DNA of 64,000 nt from Daphnia pulex. Its lineage: Eukaryota; Arthropoda; Branchiopoda; Diplostraca; Daphniidae. The stretch lies in assembly GCF_021134715.1 (NCBI RefSeq), contig NC_060018.1, forward strand, positions 10,557,501-10,621,500, in the 5' to 3' direction. Made by a program: the position numbers and the translations under genes. Of this stretch, positions 6,278-63,911 are shown in pieces. The notes beneath the pieces were generated by a model. That model searched no databases. It saw nothing but the letters and a program-made list of their open reading frames with translations, and was not told the DNA's origin. Numbering within the stretch: position 1 is the first letter of the stretch; the number at the start of each line of letters is the position of its first letter.

Positions 6278-9235
6278 ATGTCGTTAGAACGGACTACTCT
6301 CGTCGATGTCAAACTTGATTCACTGTCAACGGAGTGTCAGTTTGCAGCGAATTTGAGACTGGATAACAACGAGTTCCCAAACAACTGTGAAAACATGCTT
6401 GTACCTGTCTCCCTCGAGGTAAGTGATTTATTGACATTTTCAAAGGGAAATTTCAACAAAACTATTTGTATTTAATAGAAGCTGAAAAAGCTAACTCGTG
6501 CAATTTCTAATGGAAGTAATAAACCAGACCCAACAGACAGATCCACACACTTGTTGAAGTCAAAGAAATTGTGGCCAATTAGTGGACAAGAACTGTTAAC
6601 AGAACATGGATTCACTGCTCTTGCTGAACAGTATTCTGAGACTTTGCCAGCATTAACCAACAAAATGTTACGTCTAATGGGTCTGGACCCTTTTGCGTTC
6701 AAAGTGAAATCAAACCTTGTTAGTGTCATCATTTGTGGAACTGGTCATTCACAAGACAACTGGTCAGGCACTCTAAAGTGGGCCTTGGTTAATAACGAAG
6801 GTACAATTTTTCAAATCTTTCCATAATTTACTGTCCAAAACAAATAATTAATTTTCTCTTTAGCTTGAGGATCATTCATGAAAATGGTATTACAAATACC
6901 AGTTGAAGGTGGCCACGAAGGAGGTCGAAGCAAAGTGGAACTCGATGATCAAATTCGTTTGTTCAACGTTTGCGATGGAAGTGATCGTGATTACCACCTG
7001 ACTACTTTTTACTCTGATTGCCATCATACGTTTGAAGAGGTCAAGTTTGGCTACCGATTGACCATGCAATTCGAGTTGGAACTCGAAACAACCCCTCTCC
7101 TGTCCTCCCTGTTGCCGTCTGTGGATCTCAACACCTTTCTAACGTTCAACGATGTTCAGAAGACTCTTTCCCACTGGGCCCCAACGGAGAGTAACCAGCC
7201 TAATATGCTGGTCCTACTCCTCGAGCATCGCTACGCCCCGTCTGAGCTTAATTTTTGCCGCCTGAAAGGTAAAGATCGCCTTCTGGCTCGGCTCCTTCTC
7301 TCCGTTGGCACTGTCGACATGTATCTGGCCCAATTACGGAAAACTGTCTTCGAACCGTATAACAAGACTCTCTCGGAAGAGGAGAGCGTGGAAACCGACG
7401 AGAAGAATTCGGAGACGGAGCACCCCATTGCCAACTGTTTGTGCTGCATATAAAAACGTTGCAAATGTCTACAGCCAGAAACACAAACAATCTCTGACGT
7501 TGTCTCCCGAAATTGGAGTCTCTGTCGAGATTGCGTGCCTGACGTGTCTCGACGGTCGAATCGTCAAATGCAGACCCCCCCTAAAGGTCGATATCGATAC
7601 AAATATCATCCCTTTCAATCACGGTATCTACACGCTCGAATATGATTGCCTGGAAATGGATGGCGACAGTCTCGACCAGAGTTACTTGCGCAATGTATTA
7701 CATCCTCGATCTGTGCTTGTGACTAGCCCCAAAAATTCCTTGGAGCTGATGTTCAGTTGCAATTTAACTGCTGCGCTGGACCAACTGGAGGCCAACCCGA
7801 ACACCAAAGCCTTGAATCGAGTGACAACATTCTGCCAGGATTTTCCAGACAAAGTTTGGCTGGAGGCCGTCGACCGAGAAGAGAGAACACGGCGTCTGGT
7901 GCCCATTTGCCTTCAACTCATTGCCAAATACAACAATTTGAAGTTACTACATTTGCTGTCCGACAACTTCCCCGGACATCCTATCCACCAGTACGAAGGG
8001 TTGAGGAGCAAAGCGATTGCCATCGGAGTGGCCCGTCTGATAAAAAAGGTTGGAGTGACAACTTCGAATTTTATGAGGGATCTCGTCTGTGAGCGTCGGG
8101 CCGGTGAGCAAATCGAAAATTTCGCCCACTTGGTCATGGAACTTTATAACGTCGACTTGAAAGACGTTGCAGAAAACATCGGCAGCAAATGTGTCACTTT
8201 TCTCTACTCCAAGTCTAAAAATTTGATGCCCAGCTTGTCCGTCTCCACCCTCGTCACCTGTGCCGCCATGGTCTTCCGCATGTACGAGGAGAATCCCCAG
8301 GTCAGAGGCTTAGTTACGCTGCATACATTGATTACATTCGGCGATGACCTCGAGTTGCTTCCTCTGCCTATGCTCTTCTCTGTCATCGAGGGAATCCAGA
8401 CGACTTGCCGATCCCAACTTGACAACATCCAAGAATGCCAGAAAATGCAACAGGGTCTGCACAGGAAGCTGCTCTCCTACTTTATCCCGAAAGCTTTGGC
8501 TGAAGAGGTCATGTTCTTTTACCTCAAACTGGACGACGCCATTTTACTCAAGAAATTTACTCAAGAACTTGTCAACCAGAGCAACTTTGACGCCATCAAA
8601 ATGATTGTCGCTTCTGCCGACGGCTGGTACCAGGCCTTGACCACCATGGGCGGGAAATGGGCGCTCAACTTGCTGGTCTCTACTCGCATCAATCATCTCG
8701 AGTGGATGCGCCTACCCGTGTTCAGCTGGATCCAGGGCACCGCCGTTTTCGATGATTACGAGTTGAAGAAGTTTTTTCATTCCTCTGAGGCCAGAGCAAC
8801 TTTCCCCGGATTCCACAGCCAACAAGCGGCGGAGACTTGGTGCGAGAAATACTTTGGTCCCGATCAGCTGGACAGCGGATACATCGCCAAAACGGAAATC
8901 GAAGGAGAAATTGGGAAATATCATCATGGTTTTTTTTTTTAAATCGCGTAATTGCAAACACTTTGGAGCCACGAATTGATGAAAGTCATGACAAAGAAAA
9001 TGGATTGGCCGATTATACCGGTTTATACTAAACCGACTCGAACTTCCACCTCGTGTTCCAGCTCATCTCGTAAAACTCCGCCTCTGGAACCTTCTCCTAC
9101 AGCTGTTGACAAACAAGAGGATTCTACTCCGCCTCTGGAACCTTCTCCTACTGCGTTTGACAAGCAAGAGGATTCTACTCCGCCTCTGGAACCCTCTCCT
9201 ACTGGAGTTGACAAGCAAGAGGATTCTCCGGCGAT
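6278..9235 (+). pseudogene. Interrupted Fe(II)/2-oxoglutarate dioxygenase-like gene
   Basis: Exons 6278-6418 (ATG at 6278), 6479-6800 and 6864 onward join in phase. The third exon has VEGGHEGGRSKVEL, then FYSDCHHTFEEVKFGYRLTM, the pattern of prolyl-4-hydroxylase-type double-stranded beta-helix enzymes (DxH region ending with the G-x-R strand). A ~500-residue C-terminal region of unknown function follows, open from about 7450 to 8940. Three breaks are seen: TGA at 6866-6868 just after the splice, a frame change near 7440-7455, and stops after a T10 run at 8930-8942. Beyond that the same frame reopens and runs through three 17-residue Pro/Glu repeats (9072-9228). The long surviving frames mean either recent inactivation or assembly error. 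Substrate and role are unknown. Confidence 0.55.
9072..9228 (+). repeat. 51-bp tandem repeat, three copies (coding)
   Basis: Three copies of a 51-base unit encode the 17-residue repeat PPLEPSPTAVDKQEDST with small changes (AVD, AFD, GVD). The unit length is a multiple of three, consistent with selection or origin in a coding frame at the C-terminus of the dioxygenase-like gene. Confidence 0.9.
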
Positions 9236-9282
9236 CCGCGGAAAGTTAAGTATAATATTCGTATTATACTTTTTATTCCGGT

Positions 9283-9760
9283 ATGTCAGCTCAGTTCCTG
9301 CCATAGCCCTATTGATGACTGGGTGGTGGAACGCATGGTGGCCGTCTATTTCCAGCAATGGTAATGGTGGTCCCCAATGTTCTCACCACCCTATTGTTGA
9401 CTGGGTGGCGGGATAAAGGGTTGACTGCCGGTTGGACAGTTTGGTGTGTCAGCTCAGTTCCTGCCATAGCCCTATTGATGACTGGGTGGTGGAACGCATG
9501 GTGGCCGTCTATTTCCAGCAATGGTAATGGTGGTCGCCAATGTTCTCACCACCCTATTGTTGACTGGGTGGCGGGATAAAGGGTTGACTGCCGGTCGGAC
9601 AGTTTGGTGTGTCAGCTCAGTTCCTGCCATAGCCCTATTGATGACTGGGTGGTGGAACGCATGGTGGCCGTCTATTTCCAGCAATGGTAATGGTGGTCGC
9701 CAATGTTCTCACCACCCTATTGTTGACTGGGTGGCGGGATAAAGGGTTGACTGCCAATTT
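9283..9760. repeat. 163-bp minisatellite, about three copies
   Basis: A 163-base unit starting GTGTCAGCTCAGTTCCTGCC repeats near 9283, 9446 and 9609 with very few differences. Each unit itself holds two related stretches (CCCTATTGATGACTGGGTGG and CCCTATTGTTGACTGGGTGG). 163 is not a multiple of three, so the open frames across it are by-products. Confidence 0.95.
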
Positions 9761-37163: not shown

Positions 37164-40100
37164 CATGGACACCAGACAACTAACCAGCCTTCTCTTTAAT
37201 TCAACCCAGAGACGCAATGCTGACCAGGAAATCGCGAATTTAACTGATATCAACAATTTGGACAAGAGAAACACCAGGGTGATGCAAAATATGTTTGGAG
37301 CTATCAAATAAGAGCAATCAAGAATCCTGATGACTTGCAACACAGTCCGAGAGACGATGTGGGTAAAATTGGAAACCGAGTATGAGGAAGCTGCTGCTGA
37401 TAGCGTACCTTTATTTTAGACCTAATTCTATGGGTGTATATTTTGGCAAGGCCAAGGTGTTTCTCAAGCTTCTTGACCAAGTTGATCAGATTGCTTTCCA
37501 CCTGAGAAGCCTCAACACAATCATTGATGATGTTTGATTAATGGCAAATGTCCTCATGTCAATCCCTCCAAAATTCCGTGTCTTTAGTTTTGCGTGGGAA
37601 AGTACACCCATCACTGAGAAGACTCTCGAAAAGCTAACTAGCCGTCTCATTACACTGGACGAGCATGCGCAACGATGAAGAAAACCGATCAACTCCTGAT
37701 GCTGCTTTCTTAGTCAGAACACAAAAAGGGCTGATACGCACTCTGAAGAGTCAACAGAGCATGCACTACCTGCCCAGCATGATCGGGAGAAAGGAGGAGG
37801 CTATTCTTCTCATCAACACTCTGGTGAACGCAAAGAATACTGGGAGTGTGGATCAACTATACACATCTCAGAGCTCAATGTCTTCAATGTAAACGCCGTC
37901 ACAAAAAAGAAGAAGATGAATCAGTTTGAAAAAGGAAGCGTTACGATCGATACGAGATGATAATCGTAGAAGAGACCGACGAAGAGTTGACAACGGTTAT
38001 CGCTATGAAAGTGATAGATATCAAAATGAGCACCAGAGAGAACGAAAGGGGTACAGCCATAAATCCTTAATGGATCTAGAAGCCAAGAAACCTGCAAGAT
38101 GTACGCTGATTCTGGGGCTACCCAGCATGACGTTCAACAAGTTATTTCTCACCTACTTTGTAACTACTGGACCAGAGAGATGGTCGGTATCCATAATTGG
38201 AGAAGCAAGCCTAACAGTAGCAGGGCCAGGGGATGTTGTTCTTACTGCTACTGTAAATGGAGAACGTCTACATAGAACGATGAGAGGTGTGCTCTATGTC
38301 CCTGGACTGGGTATCAACCTTTCCTCGATTGGTGCCACAACTGACGCAGGCCTCAAAGCAGTCTTTACCGACGACAATGTCTCATTCTCTCAAGAAGATG
38401 TTGTCATAAAAGAAGGAAAGAAAGCTGGAAAGTTGAAAGAAGACTATAAAATCTCAAAATCCAAGCAAAAGAACACCAATCTACAGTTGAGAGGACACTG
38501 TCTGCTGCTCAAGTTTAAACTCTCTCTTTATGGCATAAACGTTTAACCACAAAACCGTCTTAAGGATGCCAACTTTGGGGAGTGTCTTCAGCCTCACTTT
38601 TTTCAATGACAAACTTACTGTCTTCACTCACTGTCGAGGACTCTGTTCTGAGGAAGATGCCACGCACCTTTTTTCAGTCTACTTACACCAGAGGGACTCA
38701 CGTTGGAGATATCGTCCACTCTGATGTGTGTGGTCCTATATTCATATATGAACACCAAGCGAAATCTAATTGCTGAAGCCAAAGTCTGAAGTGTCTGAAG
38801 CCTTTAAGAGTTAAATGCCAAGATGAAAACTGAGACTGGACAAAAAACTAAGATCCTGAAATCTGACGAAGATTTTGAAGATTGGCTGGCCAAAGATGGG
38901 ATTGCTCACCAAGTCACTCCACCATATACCACTCAAATAAACGGAGTAGCCGAAAGAGTAAATAGAACGGTGGTTGAGTCTGCACGTAGCCAGATGTACG
39001 GAAGGAAAGTTCCCCTGGGTTGAGACTGGCAGTTCTATCTCTGCACTCTTCGGATTATACTTGCTCGGGGCCCTCGTGATCTCGCCTTCATCCAACTAGA
39101 TGTGAAGACGGCATTTCTTTACGGGTGTATTGAAGATGAAGTTTACATGCGCCTGCCAGAAGGCTATTATGCGGTCTCTGGTCGCGAAAATGTTTTATGC
39201 TGCTTGATCAAAAGTATCTATGTGCTTAAGCAGGCGCCACGTCTGCTTTTATGTGGAAAATGGCGCTTAATGATGCTATAATCAAGTTTGGCCTCACTCA
39301 CTCTGAGCATGACCCTTGTCTATTTTTCCGTCTTCAAGGGTAGGTATGGGTTGTATTTCTTTTCTTCGTTGATGACGCTATTGTGTGCGGAACCAGCAGC
39401 AAAGCACTGGAGGACTTTGTGATTTATCTTTAGAAAATGTTCTGGCTGCGGACTCTCCTGCAAGCTGATTCCTGGGCCTCATAATTAAGCATAACAGAAG
39501 CAAAAGCATGCTGAGTCTTTCCCAGCTGGATTTTTGGGACAGTATAGTGAAAAATTCAAAATAAAAAGCTGTCATCCTAATGTGATTCCTGCTGAGCCTG
39601 GTCTGCAACTCAGTTGTTCCATGGCGCATAAACTAAATGGAGGAAGCCAATATGAAGGAAGTCACGTATCAAAGCGCAGTTGGAGCTCTACTGTACCTCT
39701 CAACCATAATACGCGCTGATATTGCTTATGTGTGAGCAAAGTAACACGATTTAATAAAAATACAGGAGCCCAACACTGGATTGCTGTCAAACGCATCATC
39801 CGCTATATAACTGGAACCAGGGAGTATGTTATATCCAACAAAAGAAGAAGGAGCGCATGGATTCACTGATACTGGCTATAGCGGAGATCCTGACAACAGG
39901 AAGTCAACATCAAGATGTATCTTTCTACTTCAAGGTGGACCTATCTAGTGGTTCGTAAGCAGGAATGCACAACTACTTTTACGATCGAGGCGGAATTTGT
40001 AGCCAAGAGTGAAGCCTCCAAGGAGGAAACAGGAATCAAGTCACTGCTGGAGGAAATTGGGCAAGAAACATCTGGTCCTATCCAATTATTCTGTGACCAT

Positions 40101-40350
40101 GAAGGGACAATCAAATTTTACAACCAGGAAATGCAACGGAGGTTAGTTGTTGGTGAAAAATATCGCCATCTGATACTGCTACATAAGAGAAGCCCAAACC
40201 AGCCGATTGATACAAAATACCAGCAATGTGAGCTCCCAGGAGCAACTAGCAGATACCTCCACGAAACCTCTTCCTGCTCAACATTTCAAGTATCTTCGTG
40301 ACCAGAATGGTGTTCGTGGTGTAAGCGATCTGTTATTGGGGCAGATTTCT
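37164..40350 (+). mobile_element. Decayed Ty1/copia retrotransposon
   Basis: In order on the plus strand, with many stops and frame changes: a gag-like start (MDTRQLTSLLFN, ~37164), a protease core with the DSG motif (~38105), a gag-pre-integrase LWHKR segment (~38530), integrase (TRGTHVGDIVHSDVCGP ~38690; VTPPYTTQINGVAERVN ~38910), reverse transcriptase (QLDVKTAFLYG ~39090; FFVDDAIVCG ~39360) and RNase H (~39690-40030). The integrase-before-RT order is that of copia elements. A purine-rich tract near 40487 may be the PPT. The element is not functional; parts of integrase and RT are missing. Confidence 0.95.
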
Positions 40351-59029: not shown

Positions 59030-60140
59030 AGATGCTGCTAAAATTGGAGTTGGGAAACATACGGTCTTTGAAGAAAAAGGAAGGTAAGTGGGATGCCAAA
59101 GGGATGCTCGGTTGGTTCTCCTTCTTGTGGGAACCATATATCTTGAGAAGCTGTTGGTTGATCGACATCTCGTCCTTAACGAACTAAAATTCCCGACGCA
59201 ACTCTCTAGCAGCACTTGCGGTTTTGTTGGCCTGTTCGAGCCAACGGCCAACAAAAAAGAAACCAATGTGCCCCACCAACGGACCGGAATACCACACACC
59301 AACAAAGTCATCGATATTGATAACATCGATGACGATGTTGTGGAAGTAAATCCACCGGATCAAGTTTTTCTGGAAGCCCAGTTAAGGTGGTATCATACTG
59401 AAGGATTCCTCCTTGGATTGGTAAGAATTTAATTTTTTAATAGTGCACTATTTATACATTTCATTAAAATGTCAAATTTGTAGAGAATTGCCGAGGAAGC
59501 TGCTGCAGCTGCATCCGCTGGTCTCCAGATGGGAGATGTGCGCCGAGCGACAGTCGACGGGCCTAACAGCGGTCAAGTGATGACCGTGGCCGTCATTCCA
59601 GCGGTGGCTGCGGTGGAGCGTCCGGTAGCGGGCAATCCAGCGGCGGCAAGGGCGGAGCGTCCGATAGCGAGCAATCCAACGGCAGCTGCGGTGGAACGTC
59701 CGGTAGTGGGCAATCCAGCGGCGGCAACGGCGGAACGTCCGCTGTCGGGAAATCCAGCGGCGGCTATAGCGGAGCGTCCAGTAGCGGGCAATCCAGCGGC
59801 GGCTACGGCGAAGCGTCCGCTGTCAGGCAATCCAGCGGCGGCTATGGTGGAGCGTCCGCTGTCGGGCAATCCAGCGGCGGCTATAGCGGAGCGTCCAGTA
59901 GCGGGCAATCCAGCGGCGGCTACGGCGGAGCGTCCGCTGTCGGAAAATCCAGCGGCGGCTACGGCGGAGCGTCATGGTAACAGGGTTTGCTACCACTGCC
60001 GCGAAAAAGGACATATTAAAAGAAATTGTCCCGAGATCGTTAATCCCAAGATCCGGGATCCAAGTATAAGGAAAAATAGCAATCAGGTAACACTTTTACG
60101 TTTTGAGAGTTTTCCGGTTCCTTTTTTTACAGACCTGATT
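59030..60140 (+). CDS. CCHC zinc-knuckle protein with 13-residue repeats (partial model)
   Basis: The exon ending at 59420 carries DIDNIDDDVVEVNPP and VFLEAQLRWYHTEG; it joins in phase to 59484-60086, which begins RIAEEAAAAASAGLQMGDVR RATVDG. Then come about nine 13-residue repeats (ERPVAGNPAAATA type) and one zinc knuckle, CYHCREKGHIKRNCPE (CX2CX4HX4C, complete). The gene is a relative of the one at 62.5-63.9 kb (same MGDVRxATVDGP block and knuckle). Upstream, 59035-59170 reads AAKIGVGKHTVFEEKGR, then TAA, then DARLVLLLVGTIYLEKLL, faintly like a BEN domain. No start codon is secured. It is probably nuclear and nucleic-acid binding, but function is unknown. Confidence 0.5.
59610..59975 (+). 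repeat. 39-bp coding tandem repeat
   Basis: About nine copies of a 39-base unit encode variants of ERPVAGNPAAATA. Alternating VAGNP and LSGNP types suggest higher-order duplication of pairs. The repeat remains open on the opposite strand too, which explains the long antisense frames. Confidence 0.9.
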
Positions 60141-62476
60141 TAATGTTAAGCTCTCAACAACGGCATCACAGACGCCCAATCACGGTAGTCGTGGGAGCAA
60201 AACTCTGCAGTAGAAGTGGTGGAGGATGTAAATCAAGGATGATTACAAGGATTTTATTTAAACAAGCATGAACATAGAATTTTGCTTATCTTATTGATTG
60301 TGAATTTTTTTTCTATTTCCACTAATTTTTTTCGTTAAACAAATACAAAAATGCCCTTTTGAAAGTTTTTAATTGTTGTGAGAGATCATTGGCAATTTTC
60401 CAAACAAAAATCAATTCATTTTTTCGAAGGGAAAAATTCTCAGACCAGCTGCCGCTGCAGCCCGGACCTGATGAAGACAACCCAGACCGATAGAGATATG
60501 CTGATCCGGCGATCCCGCCAGATATAAACCGCAGTTTTTCCCCCCTGTCTCGCTCTCTGCTACCCACTCTCCCTCACGACATTGACTCTCTTGTACTCCC
60601 GTACTTGACCAGCAATACATCTAGTTCGTAACCCAAGTTGCCTCATCTTTATTCCCCTGTAAATCGGAGCTTTACATGGCAATGAAATATTTAAAGAGTG
60701 TGACAATGAGTGACAGAGTGTGGAAATGCTGGTAGGAAGCAGTAAAATTGAGAAATACTTATTGGTTTCCAAAAACTCCCTTGCCTCAGTCGGATATGAA
60801 GAAATTTTCTCTGTAAACAATGGTGAATTTCAAACCGTGGAAAGAGAGAACCTGCGATGTACCTCGGCGGAGCCAAGGTCAGTTCTTATTCTAGAACAAA
60901 GAGGGGAAAGTTAGAAAAGGGGGTGAGCGAGGGTAGCAAAATGAGGGGAGCAGCATTGCATTATATGAAGAAATTGAGCGCGAAATGGATATTTCTGACA
61001 AGGGTGAAGGGTGTTCCTCCGCTGTCTGGCATCGCAGCGAAAGTAATTCAAAGCATCGTTTGCTCTAGTTTCTCGCGTATAGACCACTTTTGACTTGCTT
61101 CTTATCCGCCATAGCCAGTCGTGCGGCTAGTCGACTAGTGCGCACCGTGGCGGGGGATAGCCAAAACATGCTGTACAGACTCGGCTAGATTGAGCCTATG
61201 TCCTAGGCAGTTGTTTGCTTGTTTAGCTATCATACAAAAAAAGTACCAGCTCAGCTTCGCAATAAGTAGCGCAACTATGTTGGTTTTCTCTGCTGATTTA
61301 ACTAGATTCTCGTTGATTCTCACCGCCGTTTTTTCGTCCAAGTTGTAATCTATCTTTGCTCTTACGACAAGAAGCCTCTAAGAAGGCGAAATGACTATTG
61401 TTTTTTAAGGACTGAGTGGAAGACAGAAATGGAATGGGATCTCATATGAACTTAATTTGGCCGACCTTGCCCAAATTGGCTCGAAACTCGACGAAACTCG
61501 AAACTCGTGTTTCCCGAGGATAATGATGGACACTGATAAGCTGGTGGAACGTTTGGACAATTTCTTGCCGAATGCCCTTTCATGTTACAGGCATAAAAAC
61601 GTAGAGGTGAACGAGTTGGATTGTCGCTTGTATAGAACTGAAATGAACCTTTTGGCTAGCAATATGGCTTTGAGAGTTGACCCATGGTATTCATTTTGCA
61701 ACATGGTCTAACTCCATATTTACTACTTAGTCCACAATCGCAGCTGCACTTTTTTATACAGGCTGGTCTTGTTATGCCATCAAACGGCCAGAGGAATGAA
61801 ACATAACCCTACCTACCCACACCCCCCCCCCTACCTGAAAATAAATCTGTATCGAATCATTAGTTTAGTGGTTAGCAAGCCACCTAATCACTTGAAATGG
61901 TTCAAGGTTCGATCCTCGAATCAGACTAAGCTTTTATTTTACTTTGCCGATTCTAGCGGCTGCTAGCTTTTGAGCGGAGCATGCACTGCATAGGCAACGT
62001 TGCCAAGTGAGAATGTATTTTTTCACGCGTTGATTTACATCAATCTGGCAACATTGTATGGTGAGAGCCAATCAGAATGCTGGAAAAAGTGCTGTCGTGA
62101 TTATGTACTACTTAGTACATATTGCCTCGAGACCACACTGTCATTTTGGCCATTAGAGCCTCCAGTACTAGCTGGAGCTAAGCTGGTACTAGCCTTGCCT
62201 GTTGAAGAATCTGATCCGAATGATGCGACACCAGATTCTTTCATTTTTTATGTTGGCACTGGTTGGATAAGTCTGGTAGTTTGCTCCAACAGTTGAATTT
62301 CAGATAGGAAATAAGCAAAATTGTCTGGTGGATTGGAACATATTACTGCTATACTGCATTACACGTTTTTTTGCGCTCATTATTCTTCATATTGTCACGG
62401 TTGCACGACAAAGAACCCGTGTCCTCACGTCCACGTAAAGCGATTTCTCTTCGCGAGTCATGTCGTTTACGTTCAT
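60141..62476. other. Intergenic, no gene recognised
   Basis: Short frames only. A stretch near 61868-61925 has tRNA-like A and B boxes (TAGTTTAGTGG, GGTTCGATCCT) but cannot form acceptor or T stems. It may be a decayed tRNA-derived SINE. Confidence 0.35.
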
Positions 62477-63911
62477 CTATGCGGGACTTGCTCCTGAATG
62501 CCCGCGATGTTGACTGCAGCTGCGCCTTCAACCATTAAATTTGATTAGTAAACGGGTTACTCCACCCAAAGATATGTTTTACCTGGAGCGAGAACGTGAT
62601 CGATGACGTGAGTGGCAACGAGAACGGGAACGCGAGGCTGAGGGAGAGCACGAACGACGGCAACAACCAAGTCTCCCAAAATCTAGAAATAGAAATTCAA
62701 GTATTAAAAACATTACTATACCATCAAATGTTATTCTATTTAAAGTTACCTAGATGGAGTTTTGGACAATTTTTTTTATATGTCCTTTATCGCGGCAGTG
62801 GCAACAAAACCTATTTCCAGGACGCACCTCCACTTCCGCCGCTGGATTGATGGCAACTACGGGAGGTTCCGACACAGCCGCCACTGGAATGTCAGACAGC
62901 GGAGGCTCCGCCACAGCCGCCACTGGATTGACGGCCACTACGGGAGGCTCTGCTACGGGAGGCTCATCTACGGGAGGCTCAGCTACGAGAGGCTCAGCTA
63001 CGAGAGGCTCAGCTACGAGAGGCTCAGCTACGAGAGGCTCAGCTACGAGAGGCTCAGCTACGAGAGGCTCAGCTACGAGAGGCTCAGCTACGAGAGGCTC
63101 AGCTACGAGAGGCTCAGCTACGGGAGGCTCATCTACAGCCGCCGCTGGATTGACGGCCACTACGGGAAGCTCGTCCGTTGGCCCGTCGACCGTCGCTTGG
63201 CGCACATCTCCCATCGGCGGACCAGCGGATGCAGCTGCAGCATCTTCTCCTCTAACACGCTACAAATTTTAAATTTTAATAAAATGTATAAATAGTGAAC
63301 TATAAAAAAATTAAAATCTTACCATTCCAGCGCGGTATCCTTGATTAACTAACCCCCAAAACTGGGCTTCCACCACAGCTAGATCCATTAGGTGGTTGTT
63401 GTGTAGTGTTGCGATCTGTGGGTTGGCCACATCTGCAGCAGTGAGCTGTTGCACTGGCAGGCCAAATTACTTGAACCTATCAAAAAATTTTCGATAAATA
63501 AATTGTTAATTCTAGGTAAACATTGAAATTGACTTACAATTTATTGAATATCTTGACTAACTCCTTGCAATTTTGCATATTGCTCGAAGGCTCCCAAGTA
63601 TTCTCGGTGTTATCGTAATCCATCCATTTGACAAGATACATGGTCTTCCTGTTGTAAACGCAAAAAAAAATTGATTACAAACAAAACTCAAGCACATTTC
63701 AACAAAATATTACCCTTTATAAAGGATTCGGTCGACCTCCACCGTGGTATTGTAAAAGAAAAATCCTTTTTCTTTCTTCTCTTCTTTTCTTCCGTTCTCC
63801 TTCTTTTTTTTTTGTTTCTTTGGTCCTTTTTCTTTGGTTTTTTTCTTCAACTGGCATTAACTTTTGTCGTTTCCCTTGAGTTGTGGAGCTAGTAAAATCG
63901 ATTATCCCCAT
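62477..63911 (-). CDS. Chromodomain - repeat - CCHC knuckle - RS domain protein (with three small breaks)
   Basis: Exons: 63714-63911 (ATG 63909-63911; basic, Lys/Arg-rich, then [10 protein letters not shown]), 63538-63648 ([20 protein letters not shown]), 63323-63476, 62750-63259, 62583-62682, and a last exon from 62519 or 62513 to TAG 62477-62479. The chromodomain has the cage residues Y/W/W and WEP. Exon 4 has [25 protein letters not shown] pentapeptide repeats and the knuckle [12 protein letters not shown]. With one more A in the A7 run the knuckle completes as NCP and splices in phase to an RS domain, [18 protein letters not shown]. Breaks: the A10 run near 63800 (one base), TAA at 63467-63469, the A7 run near 62775. 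Chromodomains read methyl-lysine; CCHC-RS is seen in SR splicing factors. The combination is new to me; role inferred. Confidence 0.55.
62951..63135 (-). repeat. 15-bp coding tandem repeat
   Basis: Roughly ten copies of a 15-base unit (GGCTCAGCTACGAGA on the plus strand) encode the pentapeptide EPLVA on the minus strand, flanked by EPPVA and EPPVD variants. Near-perfect identity of the inner units points to recent expansion. Confidence 0.95.

What the first reader, a model, noticed from the sequence alone, without database searches (positions are those of the whole stretch)
62477..63911. Unusual architecture: chromodomain, acidic/proline repeats, CCHC knuckle and RS domain in one gene
Seen: a chromodomain split over two exons with all cage residues, a linker, EPLVA repeats, a CCHC knuckle and an RS-rich exon, with splice phases that agree once an A7 run is read one base longer. 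Known: chromodomains bind methylated histone tails (HP1, Polycomb), while CCHC plus RS occurs in SR splicing factors. A single protein linking the two would connect chromatin state to RNA processing. The TAA in exon 3 and two A-run shifts leave open whether this copy is live.
Basis: partly seen in the sequence, partly recalled or inferred. Interest (0 to 1): 0.75.

Follow-up and report, generated by a model that had tools for sequence, protein, structure and literature searches.

The report
Broken chromodomain gene beside splicing-gene fragment
This stretch of what is probably a water-flea chromosome holds a damaged copy of a small family of chromatin-reader genes lying next to a scrap of an unrelated splicing-factor gene, so the apparent single protein joining chromatin reading to splicing is most likely an accident of duplication.

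Summary
The motifs are there, on the minus strand, but not as one live gene. A real chromodomain (PF00385, 4e-15) lies in two exons, followed by a linker, an Ala/Pro/Glu repeat exon and a knuckle-like stretch. At least five copies in the genome, and Daphnia proteins, show that chromodomain, linker, repeat and CCHC knuckle belonged to one gene family. This copy is broken. The exon-2 acceptor seen in two paralogs is lost, exon 3 has a TAA, and the fourth knuckle Cys is out of frame (no zf-CCHC hit). The 'RS exon' is foreign to the family: 0 of 5 other knuckle-bearing copies or proteins run into RS, while the same sequence is the RS exon of SRSF4/5/6-type SR genes on two other chromosomes and of a decayed SR copy 265 kb away, beside the repeat block that also flanks the finding. 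A D. pulex gene model uses this stretch in a non-RS frame. Verdict: mosaic pseudogene; a chromodomain-SR protein is not supported, though no RNA data were available. Residual interest: a chromodomain-knuckle family in a duplication hotspot.

The parts
The true exon 1 start (ATG) lies outside the window, at the position that would be 64122
   Evidence: absent from copies A and B and from the P0001 model; GGTC on both sides; parts match other chromosomes at 81-88%
63714..63737 (-). remainder of chromodomain exon 1 (VDRILYKG), donor GG|GTAATA
63323..63476 (-). linker exon 3 with an in-frame TAA near its start
62750..63259 (-). exon 4: Ala/Pro/Glu repeats (15-base units 62938-63136) and a knuckle remnant with its fourth Cys out of frame in an A8 run
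62373..62684 (-). fragment of an SRSF4/5/6-type SR gene: RS exon 62530-62684 and following piece 62373-62528
   Evidence: 72-84% to C5:9336058, C3:1706504, C3:1759686 and C2:10354736, with an 82-base piece at 90%; parent matches SRSF6 RRM2
60453..62319 (+). repeat block between the two inverted copies; parts of it also at four other places within 334 kb of the same chromosome
59263..60143 (+). inverted paralog: linker, 39-base repeats and an intact CCHC knuckle in open frames; no chromodomain found before it

Best explanation
The finding is a mosaic of two unrelated pieces. The first is a decayed member of a small gene family, so far seen only in Daphnia, whose ancestral product was chromodomain - fast-changing linker - Ala/Pro repeats - CCHC knuckle. 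The intact ancestor probably read methylated histone tails with the chromodomain and bound nucleic acid with the knuckle; that step is inferred from the folds, not shown. The second is a fragment of an SRSF4/5/6-type SR gene that lies beside it, most likely because a local duplication unit (repeat block plus SR fragment) was copied around 10.34-10.68 Mb of this chromosome. In this assembly the copy cannot make the proposed protein: exon 1 is interrupted, an acceptor is lost, exon 3 has a stop and the knuckle is frame-shifted.
For: Copies A and B, about 208 kb away, show exon 1, chromodomain exon, linker and (A) the repeat-exon start contiguous on one strand, with no RS homology. The inverted copy shows linker, repeats and knuckle. 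The copy on C9 has exon 1, a degenerate chromodomain exon (PF00385 21.7 bits, below the cut-off of 25.1), linker, spacer and knuckle-like stretch in order within 762 bases, no RS seen. Homology between the finding and the inverted copy ends at 62764; homology to SR genes starts at 62684. The 10-kb loci around the four SR-type places gave no chromodomain or knuckle match. Parent RS exon: RRM_1 4.9e-5, SRSF6 3.7e-10. Lesions. P0001 lacks the insertion and the TAA and reads the RS stretch in a non-RS frame.
Against: No transcript data were available. The D. pulex model P0001 does join the linker exon to the stretch that is RS in another frame, so splicing across the boundary may happen in some isolates. 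The A8 shift in the knuckle could be an assembly error. The finding is the only place seen where all the motifs lie in a row, so a new chimeric transcript cannot be excluded. In the C9 copy the knuckle has lost its His and gives no zf-CCHC hit, so the chromodomain-knuckle link rests on order and linker homology there.
Confidence: 0.86

Rival explanations
1. A live chimeric gene: chromodomain gene and SR fragment newly fused, making a chromodomain-knuckle-RS protein.
For: All motifs lie on one strand with usable splice sites; the D. pulex model P0001 splices from the linker exon into the SR-derived stretch.
Against: Insertion, lost acceptor, TAA and frame-shifted knuckle in this copy; P0001 skips the knuckle and reads the SR-derived stretch in a non-RS frame; P0002, P0003 and P0009, which keep the knuckle region, do not run into an RS domain, though P0009 has only 10 residues after the knuckle.
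Confidence: 0.05
2. A functional short chromodomain protein (chromodomain plus linker, about 116 residues) in some isolates and species, with everything downstream of exon 3 dead. This can hold together with the best explanation.
For: D. pulicaria P0005 (116 aa, chromodomain 57.0 bits, all three cage positions filled) ends in the residues that a read-through of intron 3 gives; in exon 2 the finding and copy A differ with dN 0.14 against dS 0.82 over 37 codons, stop codon left out.
Against: The copy in this assembly is broken in exon 1 and exon 3; P0001 carries Leu at the second cage position.
Confidence: 0.35
3. The chromodomain and CCHC knuckle come from a Ty3/Gypsy-type retroelement (chromovirus), which carries both.
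For: Such elements carry a Gag CCHC and an integrase chromodomain (recalled); a weak Gag-like knuckle lies in the block at 61452-61655 (PF00098 0.028, below the cut-off).
Against: Introns at shared positions in paralogs; chromodomain nearest CDYL and HP1-class chains among solved structures; no protease, reverse transcriptase or integrase family among the Pfam hits of the finding's exons or of P0001, P0002 and P0004. The neighbourhood was not searched for such genes.
Confidence: 0.03

Closest known systems
Chromodomain proteins of the CDYL / HP1 class
   Same: PF00385 above the cut-off; solved matches include CDYL, CDYL2, CDY1, HP1/CBX, MPP8 and Rhino
   Different: linker, repeats and knuckle downstream; no enoyl-hydratase or chromoshadow family among the Pfam hits; first cage residue lost in this copy
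Daphnia pulex DAPPUDRAFT_332551, _332530, _263680 and D. pulicaria 'chromodomain Y-like protein' (P0001, P0004, P0002, P0005)
   Same: same family; P0001 matches the finding copy at 89% over 66% of the searched part, P0005 at 75% over 36% of the query
   Different: P0001 and P0005 lack the insertion and the TAA; none shows an RS domain; the P0002 model runs into a CASC3/Barentsz segment (Btz 24.3 bits)
SRSF4/5/6 (B52) type SR splicing factors
   Same: source of the RS stretch
   Different: RRM-type; no chromodomain or knuckle found within the fetched 10-kb loci
SRSF7-type SR factors (RRM, CCHC and RS; recalled)
   Same: CCHC followed by RS on paper
   Different: knuckle and RS here come from two different families; no RRM hit in the finding's exons

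Membership tests
Chromodomain (PF00385) | profile match above the cut-off | tested here: met
   4.4e-15, 55.8 bits against 25.1; P0001 45.6, P0004 32.7, P0005 57.0 bits
Chromodomain (PF00385) | three-aromatic methyl-lysine cage (positions recalled from HP1) | tested here: not met
   finding copy Val-Trp-Tyr; P0001 Phe-Leu-Tyr; P0005 Phe-Trp-Tyr
zf-CCHC (PF00098) | C-x2-C-x4-H-x4-C in frame | tested here: not met
   no hit in exon 4 of the finding; met in the inverted copy (25.3 bits), P0003 (25.8) and P0009 (24.0); below the cut-off in P0002 (11.1) and no hit in the C9 piece
SR protein (SRSF7 type) | RRM, knuckle and RS in one gene | tested here: not met
   no RRM family hit among the finding's exons; RS homologous to RRM-type SR genes, homology starting after the knuckle homology ends
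SR protein (SRSF4/5/6) | RS exon continuous with RRM2 | tested here: not met
   only the RS part is present at 62530-62684; the parent at L048 5114-5335 keeps the RRM2 end
live protein-coding gene | intact reading frame through all exons | tested here: not met
   insertion, acceptor loss, TAA, knuckle frame shift
live protein-coding gene | transcript evidence | not testable with these tools
   no RNA data held

The most novel reading that the evidence does not exclude
A chromodomain-linker-knuckle family, so far seen only in Daphnia, is evolving like conflict-driven chromatin readers such as Rhino: the chromodomain is conserved while the linker changes faster than the neighbouring intron, copies turn over quickly, and fragments of RNA-processing genes (SR, Barentsz) are repeatedly brought next to it in a duplication hotspot, now and then as expressed chimeras.
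Probability: 0.12. Interest if true: 0.55.

Novelty: new variant of a known kind. Interest (0 to 1): 0.27.

Why it matters
It removes a tempting false lead, a chromodomain-SR fusion protein, by tracing each part to its source. It also points to a Daphnia family combining a chromodomain with a zinc knuckle, for which my paper searches listed nothing specific, with an intact-looking relative of its chromodomain-linker part in D. pulicaria, set in a stretch where gene fragments have been reshuffled.

Tried and rejected
Reading the RS exon as part of the family: rejected on homology and on the absence of RS after the knuckle in five other copies or proteins (inverted copy, C9 copy, P0002, P0003, P0009). 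Retroelement origin of chromodomain and knuckle: not supported. tRNA and Rfam scans of the window gave nothing. Papers: the three D. pulex model names gave 0 papers; 'Daphnia pulex' with 'chromodomain' gave 7, and 'chromodomain' with 'zinc knuckle' and 'fusion' gave 7; 'Daphnia', 'chimeric genes', 'tandem duplicat', 'pseudogene' gave 0; 'Daphnia pulex', 'KAP4', 'assembly', 'chromosome' gave 4. I saw listings only and opened no paper. The linker test (finding against inverted copy: dN 0.58, dS 0.03, 23 codons; Fisher p 0.026 on rounded counts; exon against intron p 0.002) is post hoc, one of five codon comparisons made (the others gave dN/dS 0.14/0.82, 0.72/0.19, 0.27/0.29 and 0.24/0.33), and far too small to prove positive selection. 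In one search the tail lengths printed for P0002 and P0003 are wrong because gapped alignment rows were read; I do not use them. The protein searches were capped on candidates, and the genome search scored 150 of 979 candidates, so five copies is a lower bound and absence outside Daphnia is not shown.

Full report
Setting. The window is C2:10557501-10621500 of a 133.19-Mb assembly in 13 contigs. Size, contig number and the 89% match of the finding to a D. pulex protein point to Daphnia pulex; the species name is an inference. The finding lies on the minus strand near the right end of the window, and the gene's original start lies just outside it (L015).

What is there. Two exons give a chromodomain (PF00385, 55.8 bits). 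A linker exon follows, then an exon of Ala/Pro/Glu repeats (15-base unit, 13.3 copies) that ends in a knuckle-like stretch, then an RS-rich stretch in one frame. An inverted paralog lies at 59263-60143 with linker, 39-base repeats and an intact knuckle in open frames (25.3 bits); no chromodomain was found before it.

The family in this genome. Searches with pieces of the finding and with two D. pulex relatives gave at least five linker-bearing copies: the finding, the inverted copy, copies A and B (L016, about 208 kb away) and a copy on C9 (one search scored 150 of 979 candidates, so this is a lower bound). A and B have exon 1 (MASVSDPG...), chromodomain exon, linker and, in A, the repeat-exon start on one strand. 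The C9 copy (L063) has exon 1, a degenerate chromodomain exon (21.7 bits, below the cut-off), linker, spacer and a knuckle-like stretch whose His reads Gln, in order within 762 bases. So chromodomain, linker, repeats and knuckle were one gene. Four of the five copies are visibly broken: the finding; A (stop in the chromodomain, one-base gap in the linker); B (exon-1 donor changed, gaps in exon 2); C9 (both chromodomain Trp lost, reading frame changing within exon 4). In the fifth, the inverted copy, no chromodomain was found. None of the five is an intact full-length gene.

Lesions of the finding copy. Aligned with A and B, about 343 bases (64080-63738) are absent from both; the exact ends are uncertain by a few bases. 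The D. pulex model P0001 ([21 protein letters not shown]...) runs straight across this place. GGTC stands on both sides. The residue at the first cage position thereby becomes Val (Phe in P0001 and P0005; cage positions recalled). A TAA stands in exon 3, and an A8 run leaves the fourth knuckle Cys out of frame; the latter could be an assembly error. Intact-looking relatives exist: P0005 of D. pulicaria (chromodomain and linker, 57.0 bits) and, from metagenomes, P0003 and P0009 with complete CCHC motifs (25.8 and 24.0 bits).

The RS stretch. A DNA search with 62500-62760 gave seven matches: the finding itself and six matches at four other places, C2:10354736 (two matches), C5:9336058, C3:1706504 (two) and C3:1759686. 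The C5 and C3 places read DLNGRRIKLVEDKDSGRRGSRRRSRS..., the end of an RRM followed by RS. The C5 piece matches SRSF6 (3.7e-10) and RRM_1 (4.9e-5); the C3 piece at L049, lacking the rest of the RRM, gave no RRM hit. The window stretch [34 protein letters not shown] aligns along its length. The 10-kb loci around the four places showed no chromodomain or knuckle homology. Homology to SR genes begins at 62684, after homology to the inverted copy has ended at 62764. At C2:10354-10356 kb the SR fragment lies beside the block that in the window spans 60453-62319, though in another order, which suggests that block and SR fragment were copied together. P0001 uses this stretch in the frame [21 protein letters not shown], which is not RS. 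Of five other copies or proteins that keep the knuckle region (inverted copy, C9, P0002, P0003, P0009) none runs into an RS domain; P0009 has only 10 residues after it.

The hotspot. The 1.27-kb part of the block occurs over 300 bases or more at four other places (86-89%), all on C2 between 10.347 and 10.682 Mb; the remaining listed matches are shorter than 200 bases (56 listed, 40 of 63 candidates scored). Those places sit near chromodomain copies (L016), a chromodomain/Barentsz-like copy (L060), an SR fragment (L047) and a Barentsz-like copy (L056). The D. pulex model P0002 joins half a chromodomain, linker, repeats and knuckle to a Barentsz segment (Btz 24.3 bits against 22). Local duplication with reshuffling of fragments accounts for the finding; the mechanism is inferred from these arrangements.

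Selection. Exon 2 of the finding against copy A: dN 0.14, dS 0.82 over 37 codons, which fits past constraint on the chromodomain. The 3' part of the linker differs more from the inverted copy (47 of 69 identical) than intron 3 does (57 of 63; Fisher p 0.002). This is a small post hoc comparison, one of five codon comparisons made.

Verdict. The motifs are real, but a chromodomain-SR fusion protein is not supported; the locus is a decayed mosaic. The chromodomain-knuckle family itself is a modest new variant of chromodomain genes.

Noticed in passing
window 60453-62319; C2:10347312, 10355039-10355619, 10408984, 10680385: A repeat block occurs, whole or in part, at five places within 334 kb of one chromosome, near different gene fragments (chromodomain, SR, Barentsz-like).
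   Followed up: partly
P0002 (DAPPUDRAFT_263680): A D. pulex gene model joins chromodomain exon 1, linker, repeats and a knuckle lacking its second Cys to a CASC3/Barentsz segment; in this assembly no knuckle was seen by eye in the 3.3 kb around the Barentsz-like copy in L056.
   Followed up: partly
63323-63391 against 59351-59419: The linker's 3' part differs between the two inverted copies almost only by amino-acid-changing differences and more than the neighbouring intron does.
   Followed up: partly
window 61452-61655, minus: A weak Gag-like zinc knuckle (PF00098 0.028, below the cut-off) within the shared block; a similar piece lies in L016 1974-2210.
   Followed up: no
L015 4015-6962, plus: Frames that look by eye like a non-LTR retroelement (endonuclease and reverse transcriptase) upstream of the finding's gene.
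   Followed up: no
window 37920-40301, plus: Frames that look by eye like pieces of a Copia-type retroelement.
   Followed up: no
window 9280-9755: A 163-base tandem repeat, 2.9 copies at 99% match, overlapping the end of an open frame (8952-9416).
   Followed up: no
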